A DNA stretch of 64,000 bases from Opitutales bacterium (lineage in GTDB: Bacteria; Verrucomicrobiota; Verrucomicrobiia; Opitutales; Oceanipulchritudinaceae). Shown here in pieces: positions 12,064 to 31,594 of this stretch; position 1 is the stretch's first letter, and the number at the start of each line of letters is the position of its first letter. The stretch is from positions 1 to 64,000 of the forward strand of contig JAFIGH010000004.1 of assembly GCA_020831525.1 (NCBI GenBank). The letters are read 5' to 3'. The notes under the pieces were generated by a model. The model searched no databases. It was given only the letters and a program-made list of their open reading frames with translations, and was not told the DNA's origin. Made by a program: the position numbers and the translations under genes.

Positions 12064-12704
12064 CAGAAGTCGCTCGGCACGGTGCTGCCCTCACCGACGC
12101 GGCGCACGGGCTCGTTGCGGGGCTGATTCTCATCGCCGCGGTCGACACGGCGGGCGTCGTCCGACGACGGTTCGGTATCTTCGTGCGCAGACTCGCTCTC
12201 CGCCGGGGCGGGCTCAGCCGGGCGCTCAGCCGTTTCCGGTGCACGGGGCATTTCGACACGGGGGATCTCGACGCGGTCGGGCTCCACGGAGCGGTCGATG
12301 CCTCCCGTTCCGCCAATGCGCACTTCACCGACATCCGGGAGGTCTCCCAGATCCGCACTTCCGCGGGCGGGACGATCTCCGTCCGCGGGCGCCGGTGTTC
12401 CAGAGCCACTCTCCGTAAGATTCTCTCCGTTTTCGCCGCCGCCCGACTCCGCGGCGTTTCCATCTTCACCGCTTCCGGAGGCTTCCGCGCCGTCCGCGAC
12501 GTCCTCCGTTTCGTCGGCCGCACCGCCGCCCGCCGCATCGGCCTCGTCACTCGGCGACCCCGCCTCCGGATCGCCCGCTCCGCCCGCGGACGACGCGGAG
12601 AAGGAACCGTCAAAGATATCCGGATCCGCGCGCACGTCGTCGTCCGCCGCGAGGGCGAACGCCGCGAGGGCGGTCAAAAGCGGGAAGGTGAGGAAACGTT
12701 TCAT
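12063..12704 (-). CDS. Exported, extremely acidic low-complexity protein
   Basis: The 213-residue product has a signal peptide (MKRFLTFPLLTALAAFALAA). A mature chain made mostly of Asp, Glu, Gly, Ala, Ser and Pro follows, for example DEADAAGGGAADETEDVADG. Later come PDRVEIPRVEMPRAPETAER and a slightly more ordered end, VRRVGEGSTVPSDF. No globular domain is apparent; it is probably disordered and could bind cations or act as a spacer in the envelope. I do not recognise a family. It lies 27 bases after the TPR protein and overlaps the next gene by one base, so the three very likely form one operon. Confidence 0.55.
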   Translation of the reverse strand: MKRFLTFPLLTALAAFALAADDDVRADPDIFDGSFSASSAGGAGDPEAGSPSDEADAAGGGAADETEDVADGAEASGSGEDGNAAESGGGENGENLTESGSGTPAPADGDRPARGSADLGDLPDVGEVRIGGTGGIDRSVEPDRVEIPRVEMPRAPETAERPAEPAPAESESAHEDTEPSSDDARRVDRGDENQPRNEPVRRVGEGSTVPSDF

Positions 12705-12731
12705 GGGCTTACGTGTATTTGGACCCCCGCG

Positions 12732-14468: not shown

Positions 14469-15030
14469 TGCTGCCGCCGCCTTCACTCACCGGACGCAGG
14501 GCCGCGACAAACTCCTGAAAAGCCTTCGCCTGATCCTGCAACCGCTTGCGCAGATCGCCGTCCGTAATCGCCCCTGCGTCGTCGAGGAGGTCGCCGATTC
14601 CCGGCATGAAAACACGCCTGTTGAAGTTGAACGCGTTTCGATATCCAAAAATCATCTGCAACTGCTCGACGGGACGAAGCGCGCCGGAGGCGCCCGCCGA
14701 GAGACCGACATAAGCGGTGGGACGCTTCTCGAAACTCTCGGGAAAGGGGAGCATGTCGATGAAGAGCTTGAGCACGCCCGGAAAGCCGCCGTTGTATTCG
14801 GGGGTTACAATGACGACACCGTCAGCCTCGAGAACCGGCTTCTGGAATGCCGCCTCATAGCCCTCCGGCTTCTCCGCGTAGGCTCCCGGCGAGAGGATTG
14901 CCGCAGGCAACTCCGCGAGGTTGACCAGTGCGACCTCCGCACCGAGATCGCGGTGCATCGCAGCGACCGCCTTGGCGACCTTCAGCGTGTTGCTTCCTTC
15001 ACGGTTTGTTCCTGCTATGACGGTTATCAT
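14461..15030 (-). CDS. NADPH-dependent FMN reductase family protein
   Basis: This 189-residue flavodoxin-fold oxidoreductase starts MITVIAGTNREGSNTLKVA, the FMN phosphate-binding loop. It contains VIVTPEYNGGFPGVLKLFID, the family signature T-P-E-Y-N-x-x-x-P-x-x-L-K. The segment YVGLSAGASGALRPVEQLQ matches the G-x-S-x-G-x-x-x-x-x-x-x-x-L pattern. It would reduce FMN, quinones or azo compounds with NAD(P)H in the cytoplasm. The ATG at 15030 is chosen because MITVIAG is the expected first strand. The gene follows acs by 63 bases and overlaps the TPR gene, so it sits between metabolic and envelope genes in one direction. Confidence 0.88.
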   Translation of the reverse strand: MITVIAGTNREGSNTLKVAKAVAAMHRDLGAEVALVNLAELPAAILSPGAYAEKPEGYEAAFQKPVLEADGVVIVTPEYNGGFPGVLKLFIDMLPFPESFEKRPTAYVGLSAGASGALRPVEQLQMIFGYRNAFNFNRRVFMPGIGDLLDDAGAITDGDLRKRLQDQAKAFQEFVAALRPVSEGGGSNG

Positions 15031-15093
15031 CAAATCCACTCTGTGTGCAATCCCGCCCGGTTGCAAGTATCGTCGCAAAGACCCGGCGCGCCG

Positions 15094-17055
<1,962 letters not shown>

Positions 17056-17202
17056 GGTATTTTGGAATAGGAGTTCATTTCAGCGCGGCGGCGCGTCCGG
17101 GGCGGAGAGAGCCGGTCGATCCACCGAAGTGCGGCGATGTTGTTCCGCCAGCGCCGTCGAGGTCAAAGCGTTTCTTCGAGTGGGCGACTGGCGTTGGAAC
17201 TC

Positions 17203-19572
17203 TCACGGAGCGGCGGAACCCGTGAGGCGGCGCAGGACCGTTTCGATATCGGCCCGGCGCACCGGCTTGCGCAGGATAGTGAGATTACCGGAGGGGGCGG
17301 TCGGCGCAGCGCCGCTGGTGCGGACGAGGAGGATGACCGGCACGCGGTCGAAACCAGCGGGCAACTCGACCGCGGCACGGGCGGGCGGGCCGGTGAGCGC
17401 CTCCTCGTCGATGATGCACAGATCCGGCATGCGCCGCTTGTCTGCAAGGATGCGCTCAAGGTCTCTAATTTCACCGCCTTCCGCGGCGACGGCACCGATT
17501 TGGTCGAGGTAGATGGAGAGGATCTTGCGCGACGTCGCCACAGGGTCAATCAGTGCTACAAGCAGGTTTCCGCGGGAAGCACTGTCCGGGGACGCCCCGG
17601 AGTCTTCCGTCTCCGGTTCGCGGACGACGACCTCCGCGCGGAACACCGAGCCGCCGCCCGGATTGTCCTCCACACGAATATCCCCGCCCATGGCTTGCGC
17701 GAGCCTCACGGAAATGGAGAGGCCGAGGCCCACGCCGCCGGACCGGCCCGACACCGCCGGATTGAGTTGCACAAACGGCTGAAAGACGCGCCCGCGGTCC
17801 TGCGGCGGGATACCCGGCCCCATGTCGGAAACAGAAAACATCAGCCGGACCGCGCCGTCCTCCGCCGACTGCGCGGCAAGCCGCACGCCGACCACACCCT
17901 CCGGCGTAAATTTGACTGCGTTGCCGACGAGGTTTACGAGAATCTGCCGCACACGCGCATGGTCGCCCCGAACCTCGCGCGGCACTCCGTCGGCAACAGC
18001 CGTCTCGAGCCGCACGCCCTTCCGCACCAACTCACACCGGAAGACCCGCGCGACCTCGCGCAGCAACGCGCAGGGGTCGAACAGTTCGCGTGCCAACTCG
18101 ATTGTGCCCGACTCCGCCTTGGAGTAATCGAGGATGCCGTCGAGCGTTTCAAGGAGGTCGCCGCAGGCACCGAGGATCGACCCGACGAAGGAGGCCTGCT
18201 CCTCATTGAGCGGAGTCTCCCGCAGGACTGACGCCATGCCCACGACAGAGTTGAGGGGTGCGCGGATTTCGTGGCTGATCCCCGCGAGCACCTCGCCCTT
18301 TGCGCGGTCCGCGGATGCCGCGCTCTCCGCCATGGCGCGGGCTCGGGAGAGCGCCTCCGTCAGGCGATCATTCAAGTCGTACAGCTCCCGGTTGGTGCGT
18401 ACGCGAAATCGCCCCCGTAGAATCAGCCCGGCAATGACAACGAGGAGCGTCCCGCCGAGCGCGGCCATGGCGGCGAGCTGCCATGTGCGCCGCGCGAGAT
18501 CAGCCCGTGCCCGCGAAAGCTCCGCCTCCGTAAGTGCCGCCTCAGCCGCACGCACCTTTTCGCGCCCGGCTTCCAATTCGCTTTGAAAGCGCAGTCTCGC
18601 CTGCTCCAGCGTCGCCGACTGCCGCCGCTCCATGACCTCGCGTTGGCCCCGACCGTGCGCGCGCTCCGCCGCCAGCGCCTCCTCCCATCGCCCGGTTTCT
18701 GCGTAGGCTTCCGCCAAAACGCCGTGGATCGGGGTCGCAAGCATGGGCAGGTCGGGCCCACGCAGAATCTCCAGCGCGACCTCCGCCTGTAGCGCGGCGA
18801 CCTCCGGCAATCCCATGCGCATGTACGTCTCCGCGCGGTGCCGCATCGACCGCGCCACCTCGGGATAGTCCCCCCGCGACCGGTGGATCGCAACAGCGCG
18901 CTCAAAACGCTCGATGGCCGCGGCGTGATCACCCGCCTCGCGCTCGAGGATCCCTTCGTTGTGCAGGACGCGTCCCAGTTCCTCAAGGTTGCCGCGCCGC
19001 TCATAAAAGTCTCTCGCCCAGTAAAATTTGCGCCTCGCCTGCGCAAACTCCCCCGTCTCCGTGAGAAGAAGTGCGAGATTTACCCACGCTGCCGCACGCA
19101 TCCGCTCCACGCCCTGCGCCTCGGCGATTTGCAGAGCCTCGCGGAAGAGTGCTTCCGCCTCTCCGTAAGCCTCCATCCGGTAGTGAACCGCACCCGCGTT
19201 AATGAGGATGCGCCCGTAGCGGACGGAATCCTCCACAGGATCGACAATGGCGAGTGCCTGAAGGTAGTCTCCGAGCGCGGCCTCAAGGTCCTCCAGCAAC
19301 CAGTGGGCCTTGCCGCGCACAATGTGCGCCTCCGCCCGCAACGGAGCGGAATCGGCACCGGTCCCCGCAAGGAAGCCGGACACCGCTTCCATGACCGCCG
19401 CCGCCTCTTCCGGCATGCGCGCCTCCATCCCGGCCAGAAGCTCTTCCGGGGCCTCCGCAGGTTCCTCCGCGGCGGCAAAACACGGAAGCGACAAAGCGGC
19501 AAGAATCGCTGTCCCGACGAGGACCCCGTATGCTCTGCGCGGCGTCTTCCGCCGTTGCCGTGCCGCTGCCAT
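17203..19572 (-). CDS. Hybrid sensor histidine kinase with periplasmic TPR sensor and C-terminal receiver
   Basis: The 789-residue protein has a signal-anchor (residues 14-34) and a periplasmic array of TPR-like helices (about 80-310, for example AGAVHYRMEAYGEAEALFRE). A coiled coil and a membrane helix at about 366-386 come next. The cytoplasmic kinase core has H434 in GISHEIRAPLNSVVG, N551 in VNLVGNAVKFTPEG, a D-x-G-P-G-I nucleotide motif and GVGLGLSISVRLAQAMGG. A receiver-like domain spans 668-789; it keeps Asp722 (LCIIDEE) and Lys769 (LRKP) but has only one acidic residue at the start (ALIDP), so it may be weakened. TPR sensors usually read protein partners. No response regulator gene is adjacent. 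Confidence 0.85.
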   Translation of the reverse strand: MAAARQRRKTPRRAYGVLVGTAILAALSLPCFAAAEEPAEAPEELLAGMEARMPEEAAAVMEAVSGFLAGTGADSAPLRAEAHIVRGKAHWLLEDLEAALGDYLQALAIVDPVEDSVRYGRILINAGAVHYRMEAYGEAEALFREALQIAEAQGVERMRAAAWVNLALLLTETGEFAQARRKFYWARDFYERRGNLEELGRVLHNEGILEREAGDHAAAIERFERAVAIHRSRGDYPEVARSMRHRAETYMRMGLPEVAALQAEVALEILRGPDLPMLATPIHGVLAEAYAETGRWEEALAAERAHGRGQREVMERRQSATLEQARLRFQSELEAGREKVRAAEAALTEAELSRARADLARRTWQLAAMAALGGTLLVVIAGLILRGRFRVRTNRELYDLNDRLTEALSRARAMAESAASADRAKGEVLAGISHEIRAPLNSVVGMASVLRETPLNEEQASFVGSILGACGDLLETLDGILDYSKAESGTIELARELFDPCALLREVARVFRCELVRKGVRLETAVADGVPREVRGDHARVRQILVNLVGNAVKFTPEGVVGVRLAAQSAEDGAVRLMFSVSDMGPGIPPQDRGRVFQPFVQLNPAVSGRSGGVGLGLSISVRLAQAMGGDIRVEDNPGGGSVFRAEVVVREPETEDSGASPDSASRGNLLVALIDPVATSRKILSIYLDQIGAVAAEGGEIRDLERILADKRRMPDLCIIDEEALTGPPARAAVELPAGFDRVPVILLVRTSGAAPTAPSGNLTILRKPVRRADIETVLRRLTGSAAP

Positions 19573-19667
19573 TGAGCAAGGACATTGCTACCCCCGCCGG
19601 AAGGGTCAATCCCCGCGCGTAACGGGCTTGCCAATACGGCCCGCGCCCCTTGACCTCCGCTCCAACC

Positions 19668-20741
19668 GTGAATTCCCGTCTCCTCGACTACCCGCTCCCC
19701 CAGAGCGCCATCGCCCAGGAACCTCTCGCCAACCGCGACGAGGCACGGCTATTGTGCGTCCACCGCCGCTCCCGCCGCGTAGAACACCGTCACGTGCGGG
19801 ACCTCCCCGGCCTGCTGCCCACGGGCACGGCCCTATTCCGCAACAACGTCTCCGTGCTGCGCGCGCGCCTTGCGGGCAAACGCCCCGGCGGCGGTGCCGT
19901 GGAGTGCCTCCTCGTGCGTCCGGGCGACGCACCCGCCGAGTGGTGGTGCCTCGTCAAACCCGGCAGGCGACTCGGCCCCGGAGCGCGCTTCACCGTGGGC
20001 AACGGCCACGCCGCCGAAATTGTCGCCGCCGATCCGGCGGACGGCGCGCGCCTCGTGCGGTTCGACACCGGCCCTTATGCCGATGTCGAATCCCTCGCCG
20101 AGAACGAGGGCGTCATCCCGCTGCCCCCGTATATCGAACGCGCGGCGGACGATCCCCGCCGAGACCTCGACGCCGTGCGCTACCAAACCGTCTACGCCGA
20201 TCCAGCGGAGCGCCGCGCCGTCGCCGCCCCCACCGCCGGGCTGCACTTCACGGATGACCTCATCGCCCGCACCGAGAGCGCGGGCCACCGCTTCCACGAC
20301 CTCACCCTGAGCGTCGGCCCCGGCACCTTCCGCCCCGTGCGCACGGAGAACGTCCTCGACCATCCCATGCACACCGAGCGCTACCGTATCGGCCCGCAGG
20401 TCCGCGCCGCCCTGCGCGGCACCGGCCCGAAACTCGCCGTGGGCACAACCGCACTGCGCGCCGTTGAAGACTGGTGGCGGCGCGGTGCGCCGGACCCGGA
20501 CGGTCCCTTCGAAGCCGATGCCGACATCTTCATCACGCCGCCCGCCGATTTCCATGTCGACGCGCTCCTCACAAATTTCCACTTGCCGCGCTCAACGCTT
20601 CTGTGCCTTGTTTCCGCATTTCTCCTGCCGCGGCGCACGGACGGAATCGAATGGCTGAAAGCGCTCTACGCAGAAGCCGTTGACCTCGGCTACCGTTTCT
20701 TTAGCTATGGCGATGCAATGCTGATCCTCGACGACGGATGA
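19668..20741 (+). CDS. queA: S-adenosylmethionine:tRNA ribosyltransferase-isomerase QueA
   Basis: QueA converts preQ1 at the tRNA wobble position to epoxyqueuosine, using S-adenosylmethionine as ribosyl donor. Motifs seen are LLDYPLPQSAIAQEPLANRD near the N-terminus, AAPTAGLHFTDDL, VGPGTFRPVRTENV and the C-terminal TNFHLPRSTLLCLVSAF. The GTG at 19668 places the start a few residues before the conserved D-Y-x-L-P, as in other QueA proteins, giving 357 residues; a TTG at 19650 is the alternative. Its stop overlaps the start of the ECF sigma gene (ATGA), an unusual partner for a tRNA modification gene. Confidence 0.93.
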   Translation: MNSRLLDYPLPQSAIAQEPLANRDEARLLCVHRRSRRVEHRHVRDLPGLLPTGTALFRNNVSVLRARLAGKRPGGGAVECLLVRPGDAPAEWWCLVKPGRRLGPGARFTVGNGHAAEIVAADPADGARLVRFDTGPYADVESLAENEGVIPLPPYIERAADDPRRDLDAVRYQTVYADPAERRAVAAPTAGLHFTDDLIARTESAGHRFHDLTLSVGPGTFRPVRTENVLDHPMHTERYRIGPQVRAALRGTGPKLAVGTTALRAVEDWWRRGAPDPDGPFEADADIFITPPADFHVDALLTNFHLPRSTLLCLVSAFLLPRRTDGIEWLKALYAEAVDLGYRFFSYGDAMLILDDG

Positions 20742-21244
20742 GTTCGGACAATCACGATATCGAATTTGAATCTTTGGTGCGCGACCACTACCAGGGGCTC
20801 TTCCGCTTCGGCTTCAGCCTCGCCAAGAACGAAAGCGACGCCGCCGACCTCACGCAGGAGACGTTCCGTATATGGGCGGAAAAGGGCAGCGGCCTGCGCG
20901 ACAAGAGCAAAGCCAAGTCGTGGCTCTTCACCACTCTCTACCGGGAGTTTCTGCGCCGCCGTCGCCGGAACCGCTTCCAGGCCGACGTCGAGCCGGAGCA
21001 ACTGGAAAACGAAATGCCCGCCTTCGATCCGGATCCGGCGCGCTCCGTCGACGCCAACGAAGCCATGGAAGTCCTCCAGCAGGTCGACGACGTCTATCGC
21101 GAGCCCCTTGCCCTTTTTTACGTGGAAGACGCCTCCTACAAAGAAATCGCCGAGAAGCTCGACATTCCCATCGGCACCGTCATGTCGCGCCTCTCGCGCG
21201 GCAAAAACCAGCTGCGCAAACTAATGCGGCAGCGCATGGAATAA
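20738..21244 (+). CDS. ECF-type RNA polymerase sigma factor
   Basis: This 168-residue extracytoplasmic-function sigma factor has region 2 at about residues 10-80 (VRDHYQGLFRFGFSLAKNES, then DAADLTQETFRIWAEKG, with the DNA-opening segment near SWLFTTLYREFLRRRRR). Region 4 lies at about 110-165, with the helix-turn-helix YKEIAEKLDIPIGTVMSRLS and RGKNQLRKL. The ATG overlaps the queA stop by four bases, and the next gene, a membrane protein fit to be its anti-sigma factor, starts six bases after the stop. It would direct transcription of a small stress or envelope regulon, possibly including itself. I could not identify its promoter motif. Confidence 0.92.
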   Translation: MSSDNHDIEFESLVRDHYQGLFRFGFSLAKNESDAADLTQETFRIWAEKGSGLRDKSKAKSWLFTTLYREFLRRRRRNRFQADVEPEQLENEMPAFDPDPARSVDANEAMEVLQQVDDVYREPLALFYVEDASYKEIAEKLDIPIGTVMSRLSRGKNQLRKLMRQRME

Positions 21245-21250
21245 GCCGCC

Positions 21251-22102
21251 ATGCGCGAATCTCCAAAGCTCAGGGATATGAACGACACGCCTGACGACAA
21301 CACGCTCCTCGAATGGATGCGCGCCTACACCGCCGATCCGCGGATGATCGCGGATGACGCTCTGCGCGCCCGAGTGCAGGCGGCATTGGAAGACCCGGCG
21401 ATGCGCCGGCGCATGGGCGACGAAGAAGACTTTGACCGCGCATTCCGCGAAAGCCTGCACGCTTATCAGCCGCCGCCGGGGCTGCTCACCCGCATCCTCG
21501 TCGAGCAGGGCGCAGCCGCCGCCGGTCCGCGGCCCGCCGCGGAAGATGCGTCGCGCGGCCGCTGGTTCCACTTCGGGGCTTTCGGCGCGGCGGCCGCCGC
21601 ACTCGTTGCCGTGGCTGTCTCACTCACCTTTTTCCAGCCCGCCGCCGGACCGGAGCAACCGGTCGCCGCCACCGAAGCTATGCGCGCCGGATTCTCCGTG
21701 GAGCGCTTTGTCAATTCCATCGAAAGCGCGGTGCAGTCGCCCGTCGAAGCGCGCCGCGTCGCGCACTTGTCGGAGGCCTATTCCCTCCTCTCTTCCCACG
21801 GCATCAACAACCCGTCCGCGCCTCCCGCCGGGCTCCGCGACGAAGACACCGTCACCTGCCGGGTGCTCGAGAACGAGGGAATGAAGATCGCCATGATCTG
21901 CTTCCAGACGGACGACGGCATCGTCCACATGTTCACCTTTCCCGCGCGCGACATCGCGAACCGCGAGACGCTCACAAGCCCCGGAGGACGCCCCGTGCTC
22001 CGCTCCGTGGGCGATCACTCCGTGGCTTCATGGGTGCGCGACGAGGAGGTACACATGCTCCTCAGCCGCATGGATCTCGCAAAATTAGCCTCGCGGCTTT
22101 GA
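21251..22102 (+). CDS. Probable membrane-bound anti-sigma factor
   Basis: The 283-residue protein has a cytoplasmic N-terminal region of about 97 residues, a single membrane helix at about 101-125 (GAFGAAAAALVAVAVSLTFF), and a periplasmic domain of about 150 residues. The cytoplasmic part has no H-x3-C-x2-C zinc motif, so it is not a ZAS-type factor. The periplasmic end, with LRSVGDHSVASWVRDEEVHM, resembles the C-terminal segment found in other proteobacterial-type anti-sigma proteins. The assignment rests on its place just after the ECF sigma gene and on topology. The release signal is unknown; no site-2-protease motif can be judged by eye. ATGs at 21251 and 21287 are both possible. Confidence 0.7.
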   Translation: MRESPKLRDMNDTPDDNTLLEWMRAYTADPRMIADDALRARVQAALEDPAMRRRMGDEEDFDRAFRESLHAYQPPPGLLTRILVEQGAAAAGPRPAAEDASRGRWFHFGAFGAAAAALVAVAVSLTFFQPAAGPEQPVAATEAMRAGFSVERFVNSIESAVQSPVEARRVAHLSEAYSLLSSHGINNPSAPPAGLRDEDTVTCRVLENEGMKIAMICFQTDDGIVHMFTFPARDIANRETLTSPGGRPVLRSVGDHSVASWVRDEEVHMLLSRMDLAKLASRL

Positions 22103-22136
22103 TTTCCGCCCGAAGTTGCATAACTCTCCGGAGACT

Positions 22137-22712
22137 ATGAAAATGCAACGATTGTTCTCCGGCCTTCTGGCCTTCTCCGTTTTCGCTTCCGCCGCCGCCG
22201 CGGAAGTGGTGCGCTATAAGATCGATCCGGTTCACTCCGGTATCGATTTCCGCGTGCGCCACTTCATCAATATGGTGCCGGGTGCATTCACCGGCTTCGA
22301 GGGCGAGATCCACTACGACAAGGAAAACCCGTCCAACAGCAAAGCCGTCGCGACGATTGACATTGCGTCGGTCAACACGCGCAACGAAGACCGCGACAAG
22401 CACCTGCAGCAGGACGATTTTTTCAATGCCGGGGAATACCCGAAAATGACATTCGAAAGCACCTCGTGGGAACCGGCGGGTGACAACATATACACAGTCA
22501 CGGGCGACCTAACTTTCCACGGACACACCCACCCGGTCGAAATGCAGGTGCAGTTCCTCGGCGAAGTCGAAGGACGCGGCGTAATGCGCTCCGGCTGGCG
22601 CGGCACCGCCAACATCGACCGCACGAAATGGGGCATGGACGGCTACACCGCCTTCATCGGTACAACTATTCCGGTCGAGTTGAATATCCAGGGGCACCGC
22701 ATGGACGACTGA
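22137..22712 (+). CDS. YceI-family periplasmic lipid-binding protein
   Basis: The 191-residue product has a signal peptide (core LFSGLLAFSVFASAAAA). Its single YceI domain forms a lipocalin-like barrel that binds polyisoprenoid-type lipids in the periplasm. Family blocks seen are YKIDPVHSGIDFRVRHFIN, GAFTGFEGEIHYD, SVNTRNEDRDKHLQQDDFFN and the GDLTFHGHTHPVEM strand. The end TKWGMDGYTAFIGTTIPVE is also typical. GGAG at 22130 is best spaced for an ATG at 22143, with 22137 also open. It is the last gene of the queA-sigma-anti-sigma run and is followed by a terminator; YceI proteins are frequent members of envelope-stress regulons. Confidence 0.9.
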   Translation: MKMQRLFSGLLAFSVFASAAAAEVVRYKIDPVHSGIDFRVRHFINMVPGAFTGFEGEIHYDKENPSNSKAVATIDIASVNTRNEDRDKHLQQDDFFNAGEYPKMTFESTSWEPAGDNIYTVTGDLTFHGHTHPVEMQVQFLGEVEGRGVMRSGWRGTANIDRTKWGMDGYTAFIGTTIPVELNIQGHRMDD

Positions 22713-22748
22713 GCGGGCACCGCGTAAGCGGACGATGCGACTTTTCCC

Positions 22749-22779
22749 AAGCCCCGGATTCACTCCGGGGCTTTTTTTT
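22749..22779 (+). terminator. Intrinsic terminator after the YceI gene
   Basis: The 10-bp stem AAGCCCCGGA (22749-22758) and TCCGGGGCTT (22764-22773) has loop TTCAC and eight T residues. It ends the queA to yceI transcript just before the convergent HA-repeat gene. Confidence 0.92.
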
Positions 22780-22782
22780 GCC

Positions 22783-25308
22783 TCAGCCATCCGTTTCCGC
22801 GCCCGGCAGCTTCTTCCGCTTCAAGGTACGCGGATCGACGCCCTTCTTGAAGCGGTTCGGCCTCGATTCGAAGCGGAAGCCCACATCCTTGAGGAGCTGG
22901 ATCTGCTCCGGCTTGAGGCGGCCCTTGCGCGCGCGCTGCCGCTCCTGCGCAACAAACTCGGCAAGGCCTTGGTCGGGCGGATAGCTGCGCGGGACGTCCG
23001 CCGTGCCGTGCTTTTCTTTGAACTTCTTCAGCGCCTCGTAGCGCCGCATCCACGCCGGGCGGATTTTTTCTCGAGGACTCCAGTCAAAGTTGATCGCGTC
23101 GAGCAGCCGGATCTTCTCCTCCGTCAGAATCCCGCGGCTGCGCCGCATACGCTGGTCGGTGGCAAACTTTTGCAAGTGCCGGGGCGCTTTCTTGTGGTCG
23201 ATCAGCGCCTCCGGTCCGTGGTCCGCAAAGAGGGCCTTGAGTTCATTGTAATTCTCCAGCCATTTGGCCGAGGGGGGCTGCGGCCCGCGCACCGGCACAA
23301 TGTATTTGCGCGGCGGGTTCCAGTCGATGCCCAGTTCGTCCAACATCCGGACTTGTTTATCCGTGAGCTGCCCCTTGCGATGCCGCCGCCGCTGGTTCAC
23401 GATGAATCCCCGGCTTGTCGCGTCGAGTTCCGTGTCGGGCACGAGTTTGGCCGTGCCGTGGTCCTCGCGCAGACGCGTGCGCACACTCTCCAGCGAGTCG
23501 AGCCAGCGCCGCGTTATAATCGGTGGAAGCTCCGCCGCTTTCAGGCCGAGACGCCGGAGTCTCGTGCTGCGGTCGCGCGGCATGGGCGGACGCGCAAGAG
23601 CCACGCGCTGCTTCGCCACCCACTTGCCCAGCTTGGGATCCTCCGGCCAGTCTTCCGCTACGTCCACATGGCCGAACCGCTCCTTGTAGGCCGCCAGCTT
23701 GGCGAACGAACGCTCCCAGAGTTCTTCCTCCTCGGCAAAGCCGTCCCACGCAAAACCAATCGCCTCAAGGCGCTTCGCCCGATCCGCGTCCAGCTTGCCC
23801 CGGCGGCGGGCATTGCGCTGCGCCCGCTTCCAGCGCTCCATGGCCTCGTGGCGTGGGTGCTCCGGAGGATACGCAAAACCGCCGTAGTCCCGCTTCACTT
23901 GCTCAAGCTCCATGCAAAAATCCCACCACACTCTCGCCCGGCGTTTTGCGCCGAGCGGAATCTCCAGCGGCACGTTGACCGCATTGAGAAACCGGATCTC
24001 ATCCTCCAGCAGACGTCTGCGCCGGTAGTGGCTCGCCTGCTTGCGCGCCCAAGCCTGCAACGTCTTGTCGGAGATAAGTGCGACAAAGTCGCGCCCCCGC
24101 TGAGTTGGATCCATCGACTCTCTCGAGCGCGCAAGTTTCAGCGCATTGAGTTCGAAGAGCGTACGCTTGCGCGAAACTTCCGCCGCCACGCGGTACTCCC
24201 GCAGCACCCGGGCGGCCTCCTTGTTGACCCTCCCGTCCTTGATGTCCCGGCGCAGCAACCACAGCCGCCGCTGAAAGGCCTCGTCGTCCACCTCGGCATA
24301 GCGCCAGGTGTCGAGATGCTCCCGGATAGGTTCCGGAAGCGCGGCGTGCGCGGCCTCCAGCTTCTCTTTGAGCAAGGGCAGCCACACCGACCGGCTCGGC
24401 GACGAAAGTCCGGGCGTGTCCGTAACCTTGCGCGTCTTGCGACCCGCCGACCGCTCCTTCTTCGTCCACTGCTCCGGACGCCACGGGAAACCAAGCGCGT
24501 CAAAGAAACGCCGCTCGTCCTCACGCAGCTCGCCGCGCGCCCCGCGCTTGCTCTGCTGCCGTACCCATGCCTTGAGCTTCGGGTCCTTCAATCCGTCGAA
24601 AAAAACCTCCCCGCGCTGCTCCGCGCTCTCGTGCAACTCCATGAGTAGCTTCACATTACGCTCCCATGTGCGCCGCCGCCGCTCCGCGCGCCCGTCCCCC
24701 GCAGGCTCCGCCCCGATCTCCCGCAGCCGCTTCGCCTGGCTCTCCGGGATGTCTCCGTTCGCCCAAAACTCGCGCTGCCGCCGCAGCCACGATCCATATT
24801 CATGTTCCTCATACATCCATGTGTCCAGCGCACGCAGCGGCGCCGGCAGGCGCTTCCGCGCCTCCCGCAGCGCCTCCACCCGCCGCTCCCACATTTGCGC
24901 GATGAGGTCCTCCGTCGGGGGCAGCTTAGCCGCTGCCTCCGCCTCCCGCTGGCGCATCAACCGCCGCCCGAGAGGCACATGCCCCGACGGCTTCCGCCGC
25001 GCCATCAGCCCTTCGATCTCCTCTACACTCTTCAGCGGCTGCACGCCGGGCGGCGGAACCTTCTTTACCTCCGGCGGACCGTCCCACGGCAACCCGAGTC
25101 CGCTCAGCCGCGCCTCCTTGTCCTTCGCCAAATTCCCCGTCTCGCGAGCAGTCCGCTGGGCGTCCACCCACTTCGCCGTCTCCTCGTCGCGCTCCGCCAG
25201 ATTGCCGAAAACCGCCGCGCCGTCCGTCCGCACATACTCCCCGAGGCGCGCGAACATCGCCTCCCACTTTTCCTCCCGTTTGCGTTTCTTTTCCGACTGT
25301 AAGCTCAT
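22783..25308 (-). CDS. Giant helicase-associated (HA) domain repeat protein without helicase
   Basis: The 841-residue soluble, highly basic protein consists almost wholly of about ten tandem units of 60-70 residues. The pattern is W-x-x-x-x-x-x-L-x-x-Y, then D-x-x-L-x-x-W-V-x-x-Q-R, then R-x-G-x-L, then L-x-x-x-G-F-x-W. Units lie at about 14-76, 139-202, 214-279, 309-377, 385-447, 459-521, 530-590, 600-663, 682-743 and 753-813. Clear examples are FGHVDVAEDWPEDPKLGKWV and LAEFVAQERQRARKGRLKPE. This is the helicase-associated domain, a three-helix module thought to bind nucleic acid. No ATPase or nuclease motif is present. The ATG at 25308 gives MSLQSEKKRKREEKWEAMFA. Confidence 0.75.
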   Translation of the reverse strand: MSLQSEKKRKREEKWEAMFARLGEYVRTDGAAVFGNLAERDEETAKWVDAQRTARETGNLAKDKEARLSGLGLPWDGPPEVKKVPPPGVQPLKSVEEIEGLMARRKPSGHVPLGRRLMRQREAEAAAKLPPTEDLIAQMWERRVEALREARKRLPAPLRALDTWMYEEHEYGSWLRRQREFWANGDIPESQAKRLREIGAEPAGDGRAERRRRTWERNVKLLMELHESAEQRGEVFFDGLKDPKLKAWVRQQSKRGARGELREDERRFFDALGFPWRPEQWTKKERSAGRKTRKVTDTPGLSSPSRSVWLPLLKEKLEAAHAALPEPIREHLDTWRYAEVDDEAFQRRLWLLRRDIKDGRVNKEAARVLREYRVAAEVSRKRTLFELNALKLARSRESMDPTQRGRDFVALISDKTLQAWARKQASHYRRRRLLEDEIRFLNAVNVPLEIPLGAKRRARVWWDFCMELEQVKRDYGGFAYPPEHPRHEAMERWKRAQRNARRRGKLDADRAKRLEAIGFAWDGFAEEEELWERSFAKLAAYKERFGHVDVAEDWPEDPKLGKWVAKQRVALARPPMPRDRSTRLRRLGLKAAELPPIITRRWLDSLESVRTRLREDHGTAKLVPDTELDATSRGFIVNQRRRHRKGQLTDKQVRMLDELGIDWNPPRKYIVPVRGPQPPSAKWLENYNELKALFADHGPEALIDHKKAPRHLQKFATDQRMRRSRGILTEEKIRLLDAINFDWSPREKIRPAWMRRYEALKKFKEKHGTADVPRSYPPDQGLAEFVAQERQRARKGRLKPEQIQLLKDVGFRFESRPNRFKKGVDPRTLKRKKLPGAETDG

Positions 25309-25394
25309 AAATCTGATAGTGAAGGCCAATACCATTGCATGGCCCCGCGCACCTTGCCAACGAAATCACACCCGCCCCGCGGAAAATCGACGCC

Positions 25395-26558
25395 CTACAC
25401 CGCCGCGCGGGCAGTGAGGGCGGCGTCGTAGGCGCGCTTCATGCGGCGGAGCCCTTCTTCCAGCTGAGCGGACGGGCATCCGAAGTTGAGGCGGAGGAAG
25501 CCGGGCGTGCCGAAGGCACCGCCGTCGCTCAGGCCGATGCCGTGTTCCTCGAAGTGGGCGTCGGGCCTCCGGAGGCCGAGCGGGCGGACGTCGAACCATG
25601 CGAGGTAGGTGGCCTCCATGGGGAGGATGCCCAGCTCCGGCATCTCGTCTTCAGCGAAGGCGTAGACGCGGTCGCGGTTGGCGCGCAGCACCTTGAGGAG
25701 AGCCTGCCGCCATGGTTCGCCGTGCCGGAACGCCGCCGCGCATCCCGTGTAGCCGAAACAGTTGACCTCCGTGATCATGCCGCGGCAGGCGCGTTCGAAG
25801 CGGGCGCGCAGGCGCGCGTCCGGCGCAATCACAAAACTGCACGCGAGGCCCGGCAGATTGTAGGTCTTGCTCGGGGCCATGAGGGTCACGGTGAGGTCCT
25901 CCACCCCGCCGAGGGCGAGCGTGGGGATGTGCAGCGCGGCATCGTCGAGAATCAGGTCGCAATGGATTTCATCGGAGATGAGGACGAGATTATGCCGCCG
26001 GCAAAAGGCGACGACCGCCTCCAGTTCCGCCCGCGTGAACACGCGCCCCACCGGATTGTGCGGATTGCACAGGAAAAAGACGCGTGTGTCCGGGCGCACC
26101 GCCGCTTCCATCGCTTCAAAGTCAAAGGTATAGCGCCCGTCCGCCACCGCGAGGGGCACCTGTAGGCAACGCCGCCCCTGGTTGCCCGGCGCGGTGAGAA
26201 ACGGCGGATACACCGGCACGCAGGTCATAACCGACTCCTCCCGCTCCGCATACGCTCGCGCGGCGGTGTTGAGGGCCGGCACGAGGCCCGGCAGCCATAC
26301 GAGCCACTTCGGCTCAACGGCAAGCCCGTGGTCGCGGCGCAGGTAGTCCACCACGGCGTCGACCGTCTCCGCGGGCGGCAGCGTGTAGCCGAAGACGCCG
26401 TGCCGCGTCCGCGCCGAAAGTGCCTCAAGGACCTCGGGGGCGGAGCCGAAATCCATGTCCGCCACCCAAAAGGGCAGCACTTCGCCCCCGGCGTATTTCT
26501 GCCACTTCAGGCTGCCGGTGCCGCTGCGGTCCGGGCATGACGCAAAGTCGTATTCCAT
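25395..26558 (-). CDS. patB: PatB/MalY-type aminotransferase (cystathionine beta-lyase)
   Basis: This PLP-dependent fold-type I enzyme of the MalY/PatB group cleaves C-S bonds of cystathionine or related amino acids. The 387-residue protein starts MEYDFASCPDRSGTGSLKW, close to the family start, with the FWVADMDFGSAPEVLEAL block. The internal aldimine lysine is K231 in APSKTYNLPGL, Asp196 in ISDEIHCDL holds the pyridine nitrogen, and NPHNPVGRVFT is typical. The ATG at 26558 is chosen over a codon eight residues upstream. It stands alone between the HA-repeat gene and the divergent rhaB; aminotransferase or maltose-regulatory activity cannot be excluded. Confidence 0.87.
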   Translation of the reverse strand: MEYDFASCPDRSGTGSLKWQKYAGGEVLPFWVADMDFGSAPEVLEALSARTRHGVFGYTLPPAETVDAVVDYLRRDHGLAVEPKWLVWLPGLVPALNTAARAYAEREESVMTCVPVYPPFLTAPGNQGRRCLQVPLAVADGRYTFDFEAMEAAVRPDTRVFFLCNPHNPVGRVFTRAELEAVVAFCRRHNLVLISDEIHCDLILDDAALHIPTLALGGVEDLTVTLMAPSKTYNLPGLACSFVIAPDARLRARFERACRGMITEVNCFGYTGCAAAFRHGEPWRQALLKVLRANRDRVYAFAEDEMPELGILPMEATYLAWFDVRPLGLRRPDAHFEEHGIGLSDGGAFGTPGFLRLNFGCPSAQLEEGLRRMKRAYDAALTARAAV

Positions 26559-26757
26559 CCCGCAAGAATCCGCCCGAACCACGCCGCCGAGGCAACACTG
26601 GAATCAGCGTTTCCCCTCCCGCAAAGGGTCCTGAACATCTGTCTCCACAGGATGGCCGGAAACCGGGCAGAGGCGTTCGCGGGGATCAACGCCTTTCTTG
26701 AAACGTGTCCAAAAAACTTTGCAAACCCCCACCCGCCTGTCCACGTTGACGGCAGGA

Positions 26758-28173
26758 ATGCCGAAAGAGAAAGTCATCGCAGCAGTGGACCTCGGCGCGT
26801 CGAGCGGACGCGTCATCGTGGGCCGGTTTTCCGGCGGCGGGCTCGCCCTTGAAGAGGCGCACCGCTTCCAGAACGCCTTCCACGAACTCAACGGAAACGC
26901 TTACTGGGACGTGGGCGGCCTCCTCGAAGAAATCCACGCGGGCATCCACGCGGCAAACGAGCGGTTTCCCCGCCTGGAGAGCGTCGGTGTCGACACCTGG
27001 GGCGTGGACCACGCCCTGCTCGACGCCCGGCACCGCCTTGTCTACCCGACCCACGCCTACCGCGACAGGCGCACCGAGCCGGTCCGCGAACGCATCCTCA
27101 AGTCCGGCGACGCCGAACGCCTCTACGCCCTCACGGGACTTCCGGTCATCAACTACAACACCGGGCTCCAGCTCATGGAGACGCTTGAAGCCGCACCCAC
27201 CGTGCGCGCTGCCTGCGACCGGGTCCTCATGCTCTCCGACTACTTCAACTTCCTCCTTTCCGGCGAGGCGGTGAACGAGTTCTCCCAAGCGAGCACATCG
27301 CAACTCCTCGACGTGCGCGGCACAGGATACTCCAAAGAAGCCCTCGAATATTTCGGCGTTCCCGCGGATTGGTTCGACGGCCCCGTCACCGCCGGGCGCA
27401 ACCTCGGCCCCCTGCGCGGAATCGATGGCGTCGACGGCGTCTCCGTCTCGCTCGTGCCGGGACACGACACTTCCTGCGCGTTCGAGGCCATCCCGCGCGA
27501 GGGGAACAGTCTCATCGTCAGCTCGGGCACATGGAACCTCGTCGGCACCATCTGCGACGCTCCCCTGCTCTCAGACGAAGCGCGCTCGCTTGGCATCTCA
27601 AACGAACGCTGCGGCGACGGCGGCTACCGCCCCTGCAAGATCCTTCTCGGCCTGTGGCTGCTCGAGCGCACAATCCCCGCCTTCCAAAACCGGCCCGCTT
27701 CCGACGCGGAGTGGGCTGCCCTCACCAAGGCGGCGGAAAGTGCCGCGACGCCGTCGACCCTTATCGACTTGTCCGACGAGAGTCTCTTCAACCCGGCGGA
27801 TATGCGCGGGGCCATCGACACGCAGCTCAAGCGCCGCGGCGGCACGCCCCCGGACGACCTCACCGGCTACTTCCGCCTCATCTGCGCCAGCCTCGCACGC
27901 GGAATCGCCGATACCGCCGCGACATTCGCTTCCATCGCAGACCGTAAGTTTGACAACATCGTCATCGTCGGCGGCGGCTCGAAGAACACGCTGCTCTGCC
28001 AGGAACTCGCCAATGCCGCGGAGATGGACGTCACCAGCTACGCCCTCGAAGCCACCAGTGTAGGCAATCTCGGATACCAGCTTCTCGCTCTCGGCGAAGT
28101 CGGCTCCGTCACCGCCTTCCACGACATCATCCGCCCCCATCTCAGACAACAGCACTTCGCGCCACGCGCATAA
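26758..28173 (+). CDS. rhaB: Rhamnulokinase
   Basis: The enzyme phosphorylates L-rhamnulose for cleavage by rhamnulose-1-phosphate aldolase. The 471-residue FGGY kinase begins with IAAVDLGASSGRVIVGRF, the rhamnulokinase form of the phosphate-1 motif. It has SVGVDTWGVDHALLD, YPTHAYRDRRT and VPGHDTSCAFEAIP. The segment LIVSSGTWNLVGTI and the C-terminal IVIVGGGSKNTLLCQELAN are also typical. The ATG at 26758 has AGGA just before it; an upstream in-frame TTG at 26698 adds 20 unlike residues. No other rha genes are nearby, so the rest of the pathway lies elsewhere. Rhamnose fits the GH88 and sulfatase genes in the window. Confidence 0.93.
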   Translation: MPKEKVIAAVDLGASSGRVIVGRFSGGGLALEEAHRFQNAFHELNGNAYWDVGGLLEEIHAGIHAANERFPRLESVGVDTWGVDHALLDARHRLVYPTHAYRDRRTEPVRERILKSGDAERLYALTGLPVINYNTGLQLMETLEAAPTVRAACDRVLMLSDYFNFLLSGEAVNEFSQASTSQLLDVRGTGYSKEALEYFGVPADWFDGPVTAGRNLGPLRGIDGVDGVSVSLVPGHDTSCAFEAIPREGNSLIVSSGTWNLVGTICDAPLLSDEARSLGISNERCGDGGYRPCKILLGLWLLERTIPAFQNRPASDAEWAALTKAAESAATPSTLIDLSDESLFNPADMRGAIDTQLKRRGGTPPDDLTGYFRLICASLARGIADTAATFASIADRKFDNIVIVGGGSKNTLLCQELANAAEMDVTSYALEATSVGNLGYQLLALGEVGSVTAFHDIIRPHLRQQHFAPRA

Positions 28174-28224
28174 GTGCATGCCGGAGGCCGACAACGTGCC
28201 CGGCCCAAGCCACGCCGATACCGC

Positions 28225-29349
28225 TTAGGGAGCCGACACAACCGAAGGCGGAAGTAGCAGCGTGACCGTCGTACCCTTGCCCTCCTCGCTCAAAATCTCG
28301 AGACAACCGCCCATGCATTCGGCAAAGAGCTGGCAAACGCGCAGGCCAAGACCCATGCCGCGCTCACCTTCCGTACCGGGCATGCTGTCGAGTACCTTTT
28401 TCTCCCGCAACGTGTCGAGGCGGGCGGGCGGAATGCCCTTGCCGGAGTCCTTCACGGCAACACGGTAGCCGCTTTCGTCGTAGTGCTGCTCCACTTCGAC
28501 GGTGCCGGTCTTCGGCGTAAACTTAACGGCGTTGGCAAGGACATTGCGGACAACAAAAGCCAACATAAGCCGGTCGGTCTCCACTGTAACCGGATCGCCT
28601 TCATTGAATCCGACGTTCAGCTGCTTCTTCGCTATGTCCACCCGCAGCAAGTTGATCGACTCGCGGATAACCTTGTCGGCCACAAAAGTTGACGCCCGGG
28701 CGGAAAGCGGACCGCGGTGAATCCGCGCCCACTGCAGGAGATTCTCCAAAGAATGGGTGAGGACCGCGCCCGCCTGATCCAAGTCGTCGGCGTAGTTGCG
28801 TATGCGCTGCGGATCAAGGAAGTCGGGACGGTCCCGCATCAGGTAGACGAGTGCGTTGATCTGCGAAATCGGACCGCGCAGGTCATGGCCGAGCACGGAA
28901 AACACCGTCTCCCGCATTCGGTACGACTCTTCAAGAGCATCGCGCGTGCGCTTCAACTCCGCCTCCAGTTCACGCCGCTCCGTGACGTCTTCAAGAAACA
29001 CCCGGAAACCCCGCACACCGCGGTCACCGTCAAAAACCGGACAATAGTGCGCGACGAAGCGGGAGCGTTCCCCGTCGCGGTAGTAATTCTCCTCGACGGT
29101 GAAACCGCCCTCCCCCTCCGCCGCCGCAAAACGCTCCGCCAACCTCTTCCGCTCCGGCGCGGAGAGGCCTTCCATTACCGACTCGCCCGCACGGGGCCGG
29201 AGACCGAAATGCCTCTCATAAAAACGCCGGAAGGCATCGTTGGCCTCCAAAATCCGGTGCGAACGGTCCACCGTAAAGACCGCCCAATTCTCCGGAAGCT
29301 CCATTCCTCCGCCGACAGTTAATGGAAAAATTCCAGCCACAAGCCTCAT
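28225..29349 (-). CDS. Soluble PAS-domain sensor histidine kinase
   Basis: The 374-residue kinase has no membrane segment. A PAS domain at about 20-125 (FTVDRSHRILEANDAFRRFY, PAC end VFLEDVTERRELEAEL) leads through a coiled coil to the HisKA domain, with H155 in VFSVLGHDLRGPISQINALV. The ATPase domain shows [30 protein letters not shown] and GMGLGLRVCQLFAECMGG. The C-terminus TTVTLLLPPS completes the fold. The start at 29349 is supported by an AGGT about eight bases upstream; the internal ATG at 29304 (MELPENWAVF) follows a GGAGGA that is too close. No response regulator is adjacent. Its upstream region is the AT-rich stretch described separately. Confidence 0.88.
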   Translation of the reverse strand: MRLVAGIFPLTVGGGMELPENWAVFTVDRSHRILEANDAFRRFYERHFGLRPRAGESVMEGLSAPERKRLAERFAAAEGEGGFTVEENYYRDGERSRFVAHYCPVFDGDRGVRGFRVFLEDVTERRELEAELKRTRDALEESYRMRETVFSVLGHDLRGPISQINALVYLMRDRPDFLDPQRIRNYADDLDQAGAVLTHSLENLLQWARIHRGPLSARASTFVADKVIRESINLLRVDIAKKQLNVGFNEGDPVTVETDRLMLAFVVRNVLANAVKFTPKTGTVEVEQHYDESGYRVAVKDSGKGIPPARLDTLREKKVLDSMPGTEGERGMGLGLRVCQLFAECMGGCLEILSEEGKGTTVTLLLPPSVVSAP

Positions 29350-29626
29350 GTTATCTACCTAATTCAAGGGAGGGTTCAAGCCCCTAATCAACGCACGCAT
29401 CCGACAAGTTCTCCGCCATTCCACCCACCGCTGGACCTTCCTCCGCCTCCCAACCCTCAGCGGTCAACGACACTCAATATCTTTCTCACAATTAAATTTA
29501 TTGACACAAAGTTTCTTATCTCACGGTTATGAAAGTGACAATATTTATGTCATATCTAAATTACTTGACGGGTGCGGCTCTGGATTTCTGAGAGAAGGGG
29601 GTGCGCTGCGCCGACGCGCTTCCGCA
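29350..29626. other. AT-rich intergenic region
   Basis: This 277-base gap separates the PAS kinase start from the end of the YmdB-type gene. The part at about 29475-29575 is markedly AT-rich compared with its surroundings (attaaatttattgacaca, caatatttatgtcatatct). It holds a TTGACA at 29501 and an inverted repeat at 29536. It probably contains the promoter of the minus-strand kinase; I see no coding frame and no tRNA. Confidence 0.5.
29536..29552. promoter_or_regulatory. Inverted repeat TGACA-N7-TGTCA, possible operator
   Basis: TGACA at 29536-29540 and TGTCA at 29548-29552 flank the AT-only spacer ATATTTA. Size and AT centre suit a dimeric regulator binding site upstream of the PAS kinase gene. 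The regulator is unknown and a chance match is possible in AT-rich DNA. Confidence 0.3.
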
Positions 29627-30412
29627 CTATTCCGCTGGGATCTCGATGCGCTTGATGGAGGTGGCGCGACAGGTGCCGGGATCGATGTCGATGACGACGC
29701 CGCAGATGCGCACATCGCCAGCGGCGACGGGAAATCGCCTCGGCATGCCGTCGCTCATGCGGGCGAGGATCGGGGCGATTTCGCGTCCGAGGACGCTTGC
29801 GTATGGACCGCTCATGCCGACGTCGGTGATGTAGGCAGTGCCGCGCGGGAGGATGCGGGCGTCCGCCGTGGGGACGTGGGTATGGGTGCCGACGACGGCG
29901 GCGGCACGCCCGTCGAGAAACCATCCCATGGCGATCTTCTCGGAAGTTGTCTCGGCATGGAACTCGAGGAAGACGGCGTCGGCCTCTTTGCGCAGCCGGT
30001 CGAGCCATGCTTCCACGGCGCGGAAGGGATGTTCGGCGTCGACCTTCATGAACTGGTTGCCGAGAAGGGTGAAGACGGCGAGCCGGAAACCGTCGTTTTC
30101 GAGGACGATGTGTGTGCGGCCGGGGCATGCGGCGGGCAGGTTGGCCGGGCGGCAGACGTGTTCAAGGGCACCTATCTCGCGGTCAAACCCGCGTTGGTCC
30201 CAGCAATGGTCGCCGAGGGTGATGGCGTCGACCCCGGCGGCGGCGAGATCCCGTGCAATGGAAGCGTTGAGGCCGGACCCGCCCGCGGCGTTCTCCGCGT
30301 TGGCCACGACCCAGTCGGCACCGAGGTCCGCGCGCAAGGCGCGGAGGCGGGCAATAACGGCACTCCGGCCGGGGCGACCGACGATGTCTCCGAGAAAAAG
30401 CAATCGAGGCAT
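29627..30412 (-). CDS. ymdB: YmdB-family calcineurin-like phosphodiesterase
   Basis: The 261-residue dinuclear-metal phosphodiesterase belongs to the TIGR00282/YmdB family, shown in Bacillus to hydrolyse 2',3'-cyclic nucleotides and to affect RNA turnover and multicellular behaviour. Metal-ligand motifs appear in order: [55 protein letters not shown] and [12 protein letters not shown]. The TSEK and [10 protein letters not shown] blocks are diagnostic. Length is normal and no signal peptide is present. It lies about 110 bases after the DAHP synthase gene, with the PIN-TRAM gene further upstream, all on the minus strand. Confidence 0.93.
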
Positions 30413-30520
30413 AGGCGCAAGAGCACCTCACGAAACGGCGGGGAGCAAGCCCCATCGCAAGGCGCACCGTTTCCTTCGCCGGTTCCGTGCGTCCTGCCGC
30501 AGTGGCGGACTACCGCCGGT

Positions 30521-31594
30521 CTACGCGGCGCCGCTGTCGGTGCTTCCGTTGCCGTTGCCCCGCCAGCGCGAGCGCAGATCCCAGACGGCGCGCACGTCAG
30601 CGATCAAAGCCTTGAGCACCTCCGGTTTGATACTCTGTTTGGGATCATCCCCGATGCCGCTGATAGGATCGACGTGGGTCTCCACAATAAGCCCGTCGGC
30701 CCCGTAGGCGATGGCGGCAAGCGAGGCGGCGGGAACATAATGTGCCCGCCCGACGGAGTGCGACGGGTCGAAAACGACCGGTGCCCACGACTTTTCCTTG
30801 AGCAGCGGCGCAATGGCTTCGTCGGGGTGGTTACGGTAGCCGTCGAGCATAGGCATCGTGCCGCGCGGGCAGAAGATCACGTTGGGATTGCCGTTCGCCA
30901 CGATGTATTCCGCCGCCGCGATGAACTCGTCGATCGGCCCCATGTGGCGGCTGCGCTTGAGGAGCACGGGAATGCCGGGCTCCGCCGTCTGCCTGCCGAC
31001 CTCGGCGAGAAGCGTGTAATTGAGCGCGTTGCGCGTACCGATCTGGAGCATGTCAACCTCCGCCTCGACAGCGAGCCGGAGCTGTGCTTCGTCCATGACC
31101 TCGGCGATGACGGGCAGGCCTGTACGCTCGCGGGCCTCAAGGAGAAAACCCAGCGACTTCACCGTGCCCTGAAAACTGTGCGGCGAGGTGCGCGGCTTCC
31201 AGACGCCTCCACGGATAACATGGGCACCCGCCTCTTTCACCGCTGCGGCGGTTTCAAAAAAGGCGGCGCTGTTCTCCGGATCGATCGTACAATGGCCCGC
31301 GATCACGAGCGGTTCCCCGCCCACCTCGACTCCGCCGATTTTCATGCGGTGGCGCGAGAGGTCGGAGCGGCGGTCCATGAACTTGTAGATCGATTCCATC
31401 CGGTCCACGCGGTCGACATAGGACAGACCGAGAAGCCGGTTGACCATTGTCTCGCTGCGCTCGTCGCCAATGATCGCGTAGATCTGCCGGTGCGCGCCGT
31501 GGATCACTTGGATCTTGCAGCCGAACTCGCCGACGATCTGCTCGATCTCGGCCAGTTGCTTATCCGTGAGGACGGGGGCTTTGGAAATAATCAT
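30521..31594 (-). CDS. aroF: Atypical DAHP synthase (3-deoxy-7-phosphoheptulonate synthase, type I beta)
   Basis: The enzyme would condense PEP and erythrose 4-phosphate, the first shikimate step. The 357-residue protein has an N-terminal regulatory domain (about 1-75, start MIISKAPVLTDKQLAEIEQI) and a TIM barrel. Substrate and metal residues are kept: WKPRTSPHSFQG, Cys in AGHCTID, His in DPSHSVGRAHYVP, Glu in IVETHVDP and Asp in GDDPKQS. However, several usually stable motifs differ: AGHCTID instead of AGPCSVE, KRSRHMGPIDEF instead of KRG-x3-T-x-E-E-W, and FCPRGTM instead of LCERGIR. It may be a divergent DAHP synthase or a relative with altered substrate. Confidence 0.8.
   Translation of the reverse strand: MIISKAPVLTDKQLAEIEQIVGEFGCKIQVIHGAHRQIYAIIGDERSETMVNRLLGLSYVDRVDRMESIYKFMDRRSDLSRHRMKIGGVEVGGEPLVIAGHCTIDPENSAAFFETAAAVKEAGAHVIRGGVWKPRTSPHSFQGTVKSLGFLLEARERTGLPVIAEVMDEAQLRLAVEAEVDMLQIGTRNALNYTLLAEVGRQTAEPGIPVLLKRSRHMGPIDEFIAAAEYIVANGNPNVIFCPRGTMPMLDGYRNHPDEAIAPLLKEKSWAPVVFDPSHSVGRAHYVPAASLAAIAYGADGLIVETHVDPISGIGDDPKQSIKPEVLKALIADVRAVWDLRSRWRGNGNGSTDSGAA

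What the first reader, a model, noticed from the sequence alone, without database searches (positions are those of the whole stretch)
22783..25308. Ten tandem helicase-associated domains with no helicase attached
HA domains normally occur as one to a few copies at the C-terminus of superfamily 2 helicases. Here I can lay out about ten units in an 841-residue basic protein that has no Walker, DEAD or nuclease motif. The last units (for example the one with FGHVDVAEDWPEDPKLGKWV) fit the consensus best; others keep only the Trp, the W-V-x-x-Q-R part and the L-x-x-x-G-F end. Such an array suggests a long nucleic-acid binding rod with an unknown role. It is a single gene with its own upstream gap.
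Basis: partly seen in the sequence, partly recalled or inferred. Interest (0 to 1): 0.65.

Follow-up and report, generated by a model that had tools for sequence, protein, structure and literature searches.

The report
Helicase-free array of ten HA domains
A soda-lake-type bacterium carries a conserved protein that is nothing but ten copies of a small, probably DNA-gripping module normally attached to helicases; it is real and selected for, but helicase-free arrays of this module already occur, unstudied, in other bacteria.

Summary
The gene at 22783-25308 (-) encodes a basic 841-residue protein (pI 10.2) made only of helicase-associated (HA, PF03457) units: 231 bits, E 1e-69, with no helicase, nuclease or other accepted domain. 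Nine units are found by sequence profile. The tenth (residues 305-371) shows only as the same three-helix pattern in the AlphaFold2 model.

It is the only HA gene in its genome. It is full length, 76-81% identical and under purifying selection (dN/dS 0.16-0.21) in the two other genomes of its genus, and absent from the 14 other genomes of its family.

It is not a lone oddity. Helicase-free HA arrays recur in this order and class alongside Mrr/ResIII/Helicase_C-HA proteins with 5-14 units. Annotated ones exist on plasmids of other phyla. New here: the array belongs to an old orthologous family in the order, whose last unit keeps its identity. A leave-one-out model of that unit ranks the family's last units top and gives no positive score to units of helicases or of arrays from other orders.

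Most likely it is a chromosomal, multivalent DNA-binding (less likely RNA-binding) protein that works without a helicase. Binding, target and role were not testable here. No conserved gene partner was found.

The parts
22783..25308 (-). Gene for the 841-residue stand-alone HA-array protein (98.7 kDa, pI 10.2, net charge about +53)
25093..25275 (-). HA unit 1 (residues 12-72); the only acidic unit (pI 4.7)
24712..24900 (-). HA unit 2 (residues 137-199)
24487..24678 (-). HA unit 3 (residues 211-274)
24196..24396 (-). HA-like unit 4 (residues 305-371): not found by profile, recognised by the same three-helix pattern in the model
23974..24171 (-). HA unit 5 (residues 380-445); profile match covers only its C-terminal half
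23752..23934 (-). HA unit 6 (residues 459-519)
23545..23724 (-). HA unit 7 (residues 529-588), the unit with FGHVDVAEDWPEDPKLGKWV; groups with unit 4 of 7 or 5 of 8 in several relatives
23329..23511 (-). HA unit 8 (residues 600-660)
23086..23268 (-). HA unit 9 (residues 681-741)
22876..23058 (-). HA unit 10 (residues 751-811), best fit; orthologous to the last unit of the other arrays of the order
22786..22869 (-). Basic, probably disordered C-terminal tail (residues 814-841)
25330..25359 (-). Upstream element TGGCAAG-N12-ATGCAATGGTA, conserved in all three genomes of the genus and found once in the genome; candidate promoter or operator, untested

Best explanation
A chromosomal, stand-alone, multivalent DNA-binding protein. 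Ten three-helix HA units, joined by short linkers, present a string of basic surfaces (the W-V-x-x-Q-R helix and the R-x-G-x-L turn of each unit) that together bind one nucleic acid strongly or bridge several stretches; it works as an architectural or regulatory binder rather than as a motor. Shown: the ten-unit anatomy (unit 4 by model only), absence of enzyme domains, purifying selection, conserved place within the genus, and membership of an order-wide family whose last unit (and, for part of the family, unit 7) keeps its identity. Inferred: nucleic-acid binding, which face binds, preference for DNA over RNA, and the architectural or regulatory role.
For: HA is the only accepted domain. Ten repeated three-helix units in the model; a two-unit piece folds with pLDDT 94. 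pI 10.2 and +53 net charge. dN/dS 0.16-0.21 over the full length. The only HA gene in the genome, so it cannot be serving an HA-helicase there. Syntenic in the genus, not on a visible mobile element. The related HA helicases have an N-terminal region like restriction-nuclease/translocase enzymes of type IIG and type I in PADLOC, with the HA array where those enzymes carry the methylase and target-recognition parts, which points to DNA binding. The last units of the arrays of the family form one clade (97/97), and a leave-one-out model of it gives its nine highest scores to last units of the family, which suggests an individual role for that unit.
Against: No binding data of any kind. PF03457 itself is named by association; nucleic-acid binding of HA is a proposal in the family description (own knowledge), not a result here. 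Foldseek finds no significant match to any known DNA-binding fold for either model. No conserved neighbour gene links it to transcription, replication or repair. Unit 1 is acidic. RNA or protein binding would fit the same anatomy.
Confidence: 0.5

Rival explanations
1. An RNA-binding array: the units grip structured RNA (rRNA, mRNA) and the protein acts as an RNA chaperone or post-transcriptional regulator.
For: Same basic multi-unit anatomy; no DNA-specific partner or neighbour found; the helicase partners are SF2, a superfamily with many RNA enzymes (own knowledge).
Against: The HA helicases of this class look like DNA restriction translocases (Mrr_cat_2, ResIII), which favours DNA for the module.
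Confidence: 0.2
2. A defence or counter-defence factor: a target-recognition array that has lost its nuclease-helicase and acts in trans with another enzyme, or decoys foreign DNA.
For: HA units are found with restriction-like nuclease-helicases in the same class; distribution is patchy (24 of 373 genomes of the order).
Against: No PADLOC match for the protein; no HA helicase in this genome; no recurrent neighbour; stable synteny over a genus whose members differ by 19-25% in this protein.
Confidence: 0.12
3. A protein scaffold: helical repeats that bind proteins, with the basic charge incidental.
For: Whole-chain Foldseek lists helical-repeat scaffold proteins, but all with E above 0.2.
Against: Those matches are not significant; linkers are disordered and pTM is 0.29, unlike a packed solenoid; the charge is high.
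Confidence: 0.1
4. A decaying remnant of an HA helicase that lost its motor and has no function.
For: A broken case does exist: L061 has a helicase cut from its 14 HA units by a frame change.
Against: Full-length open frame in three species with dN/dS 0.16-0.21; an order-wide family without any helicase in the fetched loci; its last unit is not nested among those of the helicases.
Confidence: 0.03

Closest known systems
Pfam PF03457 (HA, helicase associated domain); only solved member found: 2KTA (NMR, 'putative helicase')
   Same: Nine of the ten units match an HA profile; 2KTA matches the two-unit profile at E 5.6e-12.
   Different: Here no helicase precedes the units, and there are ten of them.
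HA-containing Mrr/ResIII/Helicase_C proteins of the same class (L062-L065, L078, L079, L083 and others)
   Same: Same module, 5-14 tandem copies at the C-terminus.
   Different: They carry about 660 residues of nuclease-like region and SF2 motor ahead of the array; their units are on average more alike within one protein (mean 0.39 against 0.31 for stand-alone arrays, p 0.009; 0.25 in the window protein).
Annotated stand-alone HA proteins in RefSeq, e.g. WP_062546108.1 (Rufibacter tibetensis plasmid, 567 aa, 7 units) and WP_044571253.1 (Arthrobacter alpinus plasmid, 285 aa, 4 units)
   Same: HA units only, no helicase.
   Different: Plasmid-borne, shorter, other phyla; not shown to belong to the order-wide family.
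Stand-alone arrays of the same order (L058, L059, L060, L067, L069-L073)
   Same: Last unit orthologous in all, unit 7 in part of them; no helicase nearby.
   Different: 6-8 detectable units, 21-29% identity to the window protein, many with an N-terminal MAKRKxKxRK-type basic tail that the window protein lacks.

Membership tests
HA domain family PF03457 | Sequence match above the curated cut-off | tested here: met
   231 bits against a cut-off of 28.4; six units pass alone
HA domain family PF03457 | Three-helix unit of about 60-65 residues with W...L...W-V-x-x-Q-R...G-x-L...L-G-F | tested here: met
   unit 4 meets the helix pattern only
HA domain family PF03457 | Nucleic-acid binding | not testable with these tools
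   Needs a binding assay
SF2 helicase with HA domains | ResIII/DEAD and Helicase_C domains | tested here: not met
   None in the protein, none in the 64-kb window by tblastn with class helicases; no HA helicase in the genome
Order-wide stand-alone HA array family (defined here) | Last unit closest to the last unit of the other arrays | tested here: met
   Clade support 97/97; leave-one-out score 95.1 against 78.7 bits for the general HA profile
Order-wide stand-alone HA array family (defined here) | No helicase in the protein or nearby | tested here: met
   over the loci fetched for each relative (about 6-20 kb)
Known anti-phage defence proteins | Match to a PADLOC model | tested here: not met
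   No match up to E 0.1

The most novel reading that the evidence does not exclude
A modular, position-specific DNA reader: because units keep their own identity over the order while being only about 25% identical to their neighbours in the array, the array could read an extended DNA site unit by unit, a new kind of repeat DNA binder comparable in logic to TAL effectors but unrelated to them.
Probability: 0.07. Interest if true: 0.85.

Novelty: new member of a known kind. Interest (0 to 1): 0.36.

Why it matters
The HA domain is carried by many bacterial helicases, yet nothing in the papers searched describes what it does. A protein made only of HA units, conserved without a motor, isolates the module and makes its function directly testable: any binding measured for it belongs to HA alone. 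If the units prove to read sequence one by one, it would be a new class of repeat DNA binder.

Tried and rejected
Gene partners: comparison of 495 neighbouring ORFs over 51 HA loci gave no neighbour shared between families of the stand-alone arrays that would suggest a partner. Remnant helicase: rejected on dN/dS, open frames and the unit tree. Split gene with a helicase next door: none in the flanks; L061 is such a case elsewhere and was not counted as stand-alone. Overlapping + strand ORF 22735-24648 (637 aa): in one relative the matching stretch holds two stops, and identity is only 54-61%, lower than the HA frame, so it is a high-GC shadow ORF. Fold comparison with PDB: nothing significant for the whole chain or the two-unit piece. 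Mobile element: synteny and the lack of close plasmid or phage copies argue against it. Open literature: five searches found no study of bacterial PF03457 arrays, but most subscription papers are not held. An empty site in other genera was sought, but in the nearest one the neighbour genes lie on different contigs.

Full report
What is there. The minus strand of 22783-25308 encodes an 841-residue protein. Pfam finds one accepted family, HA (PF03457), with 231 bits and E 1.1e-69. NCBIfam, PADLOC and PHROGs give nothing. A profile from 257 HA units of other genomes, none from this genus, marks nine units. AlphaFold2 shows ten repeats of long helix, about 15-residue helix and about 9-residue helix; the repeat missed by the profile is at 305-371. 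The count of ten is therefore correct, with the fourth unit resting on structure prediction alone. The two C-terminal units modelled alone with an alignment of 47 unit pairs give pLDDT 94.4 and pTM 0.68. The whole chain has pTM 0.29 and disordered links at about 78-116 and 282-304, so it is better called a string of units than a rod.

Is it a gene under selection? The two other genomes of the genus carry it full length at 81 and 76% identity. They appear to be the same contigs as two Opitutales MAG records found in GTDB (that they come from soda-lake sediment is my reading of the isolate codes). dN/dS is 0.16-0.21, somewhat higher than in neighbouring genes (0.03-0.19) but clearly purifying. 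Synteny is kept with one relative from window 11669 to 30733, with small gaps, and with the other up to about 25405. The upstream aminotransferase gene is 86 bases away here, about 1.2 kb away in one relative and on another contig in the other, while a short element upstream of the array, TGGCAAG-N12-ATGCAATGGTA in the window, is conserved in all three and occurs once in the genome. This points to an independent transcription unit.

How unusual is it? It is the only HA gene in its 5.3-Mb genome and is absent from the 14 other genomes of the family. HA matches occur in 24 of 373 genomes of the order, 25 of 384 of the class sample and 12 of 388 of the phylum sample. In the class they come in two builds: a restriction-like nuclease region, ResIII and Helicase_C domains followed by 5-14 HA units, the first at about residue 665; and HA units only, with no helicase in the fetched flanks. 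HA-only proteins are also annotated on plasmids of Rufibacter (7 units) and Arthrobacter (4 units). So the architecture is recurrent and not new as a kind.

What is new. Among the HA-only arrays of this order, some form one old family. In a tree of 89 units, the last units of the window array and of arrays from four other families of the order make one clade (97/97), and window unit 7 groups with unit 4 of 7 or 5 of 8 of several relatives (98/98). The tree has few columns, so I tested it independently. A model of the last unit, built leaving out the array being scored and its close relatives, beats the general HA profile for last units of these arrays by 6 to 42 bits. The nine highest differences all belong to last units; the only other units with a positive difference are window units 8 and 9 (6.2 and 2.9 bits), and no unit of a helicase or of an array from another order has one. 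The general profile had seen the relatives' units but not those of the window genus, so the comparison for the relatives is conservative and that for the window is slightly favoured. Units inside these arrays are very unlike each other (mean identity 0.21-0.30), against a mean of 0.39 inside helicase arrays. So the arrays were not recently expanded; at least the last unit, and in part the seventh, has been kept for its own part.

How it may work. The chain is strongly basic. The helicases with HA units in this class resemble restriction translocases in their N-terminal 650 residues, with the array where such enzymes carry methylase and target-recognition parts. I infer that HA grips DNA and that the stand-alone array is a multivalent DNA binder with an architectural or regulatory role (0.5). 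RNA binding is the main rival (0.2). No partner gene is shared across families, so the pathway is open.

Limits. No binding evidence exists in the data used. PDB fold searches gave no significant match; by sequence the only solved relative is 2KTA, from a putative helicase (that it is an NMR structure is from memory). The literature library lacks most subscription papers.

Noticed in passing
L133-L141 (other classes of the phylum), e.g. L134:4214-4984 (-): A separate conserved family of about 255-280 aa: two HA units followed by a conserved domain of about 110 residues (motifs YIQYNGxG, PPxIxLP, GxLPExVLxYxxENGxLPP) without a Pfam or NCBIfam match in the one scanned.
   Followed up: partly
L142:4315-5331 (+): A single HA unit at the end of a protein that looks like a REP-associated tyrosine transposase (NCBIfam NF047646 at only E 0.03); a possible fusion of HA to a DNA-acting transposase.
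   Followed up: partly
L061:3346-8224 (+): An HA helicase whose reading frame changes between the first part of the helicase and the Helicase_C + 14 HA part: a natural or assembly frameshift.
   Followed up: no
window 22749-22773 (+): Strong terminator-like hairpin with T run after the YceI gene, between it and the convergent HA array gene.
   Followed up: no
L144:2057-4807 (+), Arthrobacter alpinus plasmid: A 4-unit HA-only gene about 70 bases downstream, same strand, of a protein with weak matches to primase-polymerase (LigD_Prim-Pol, AEP-TOTE) and helix-turn-helix families.
   Followed up: no
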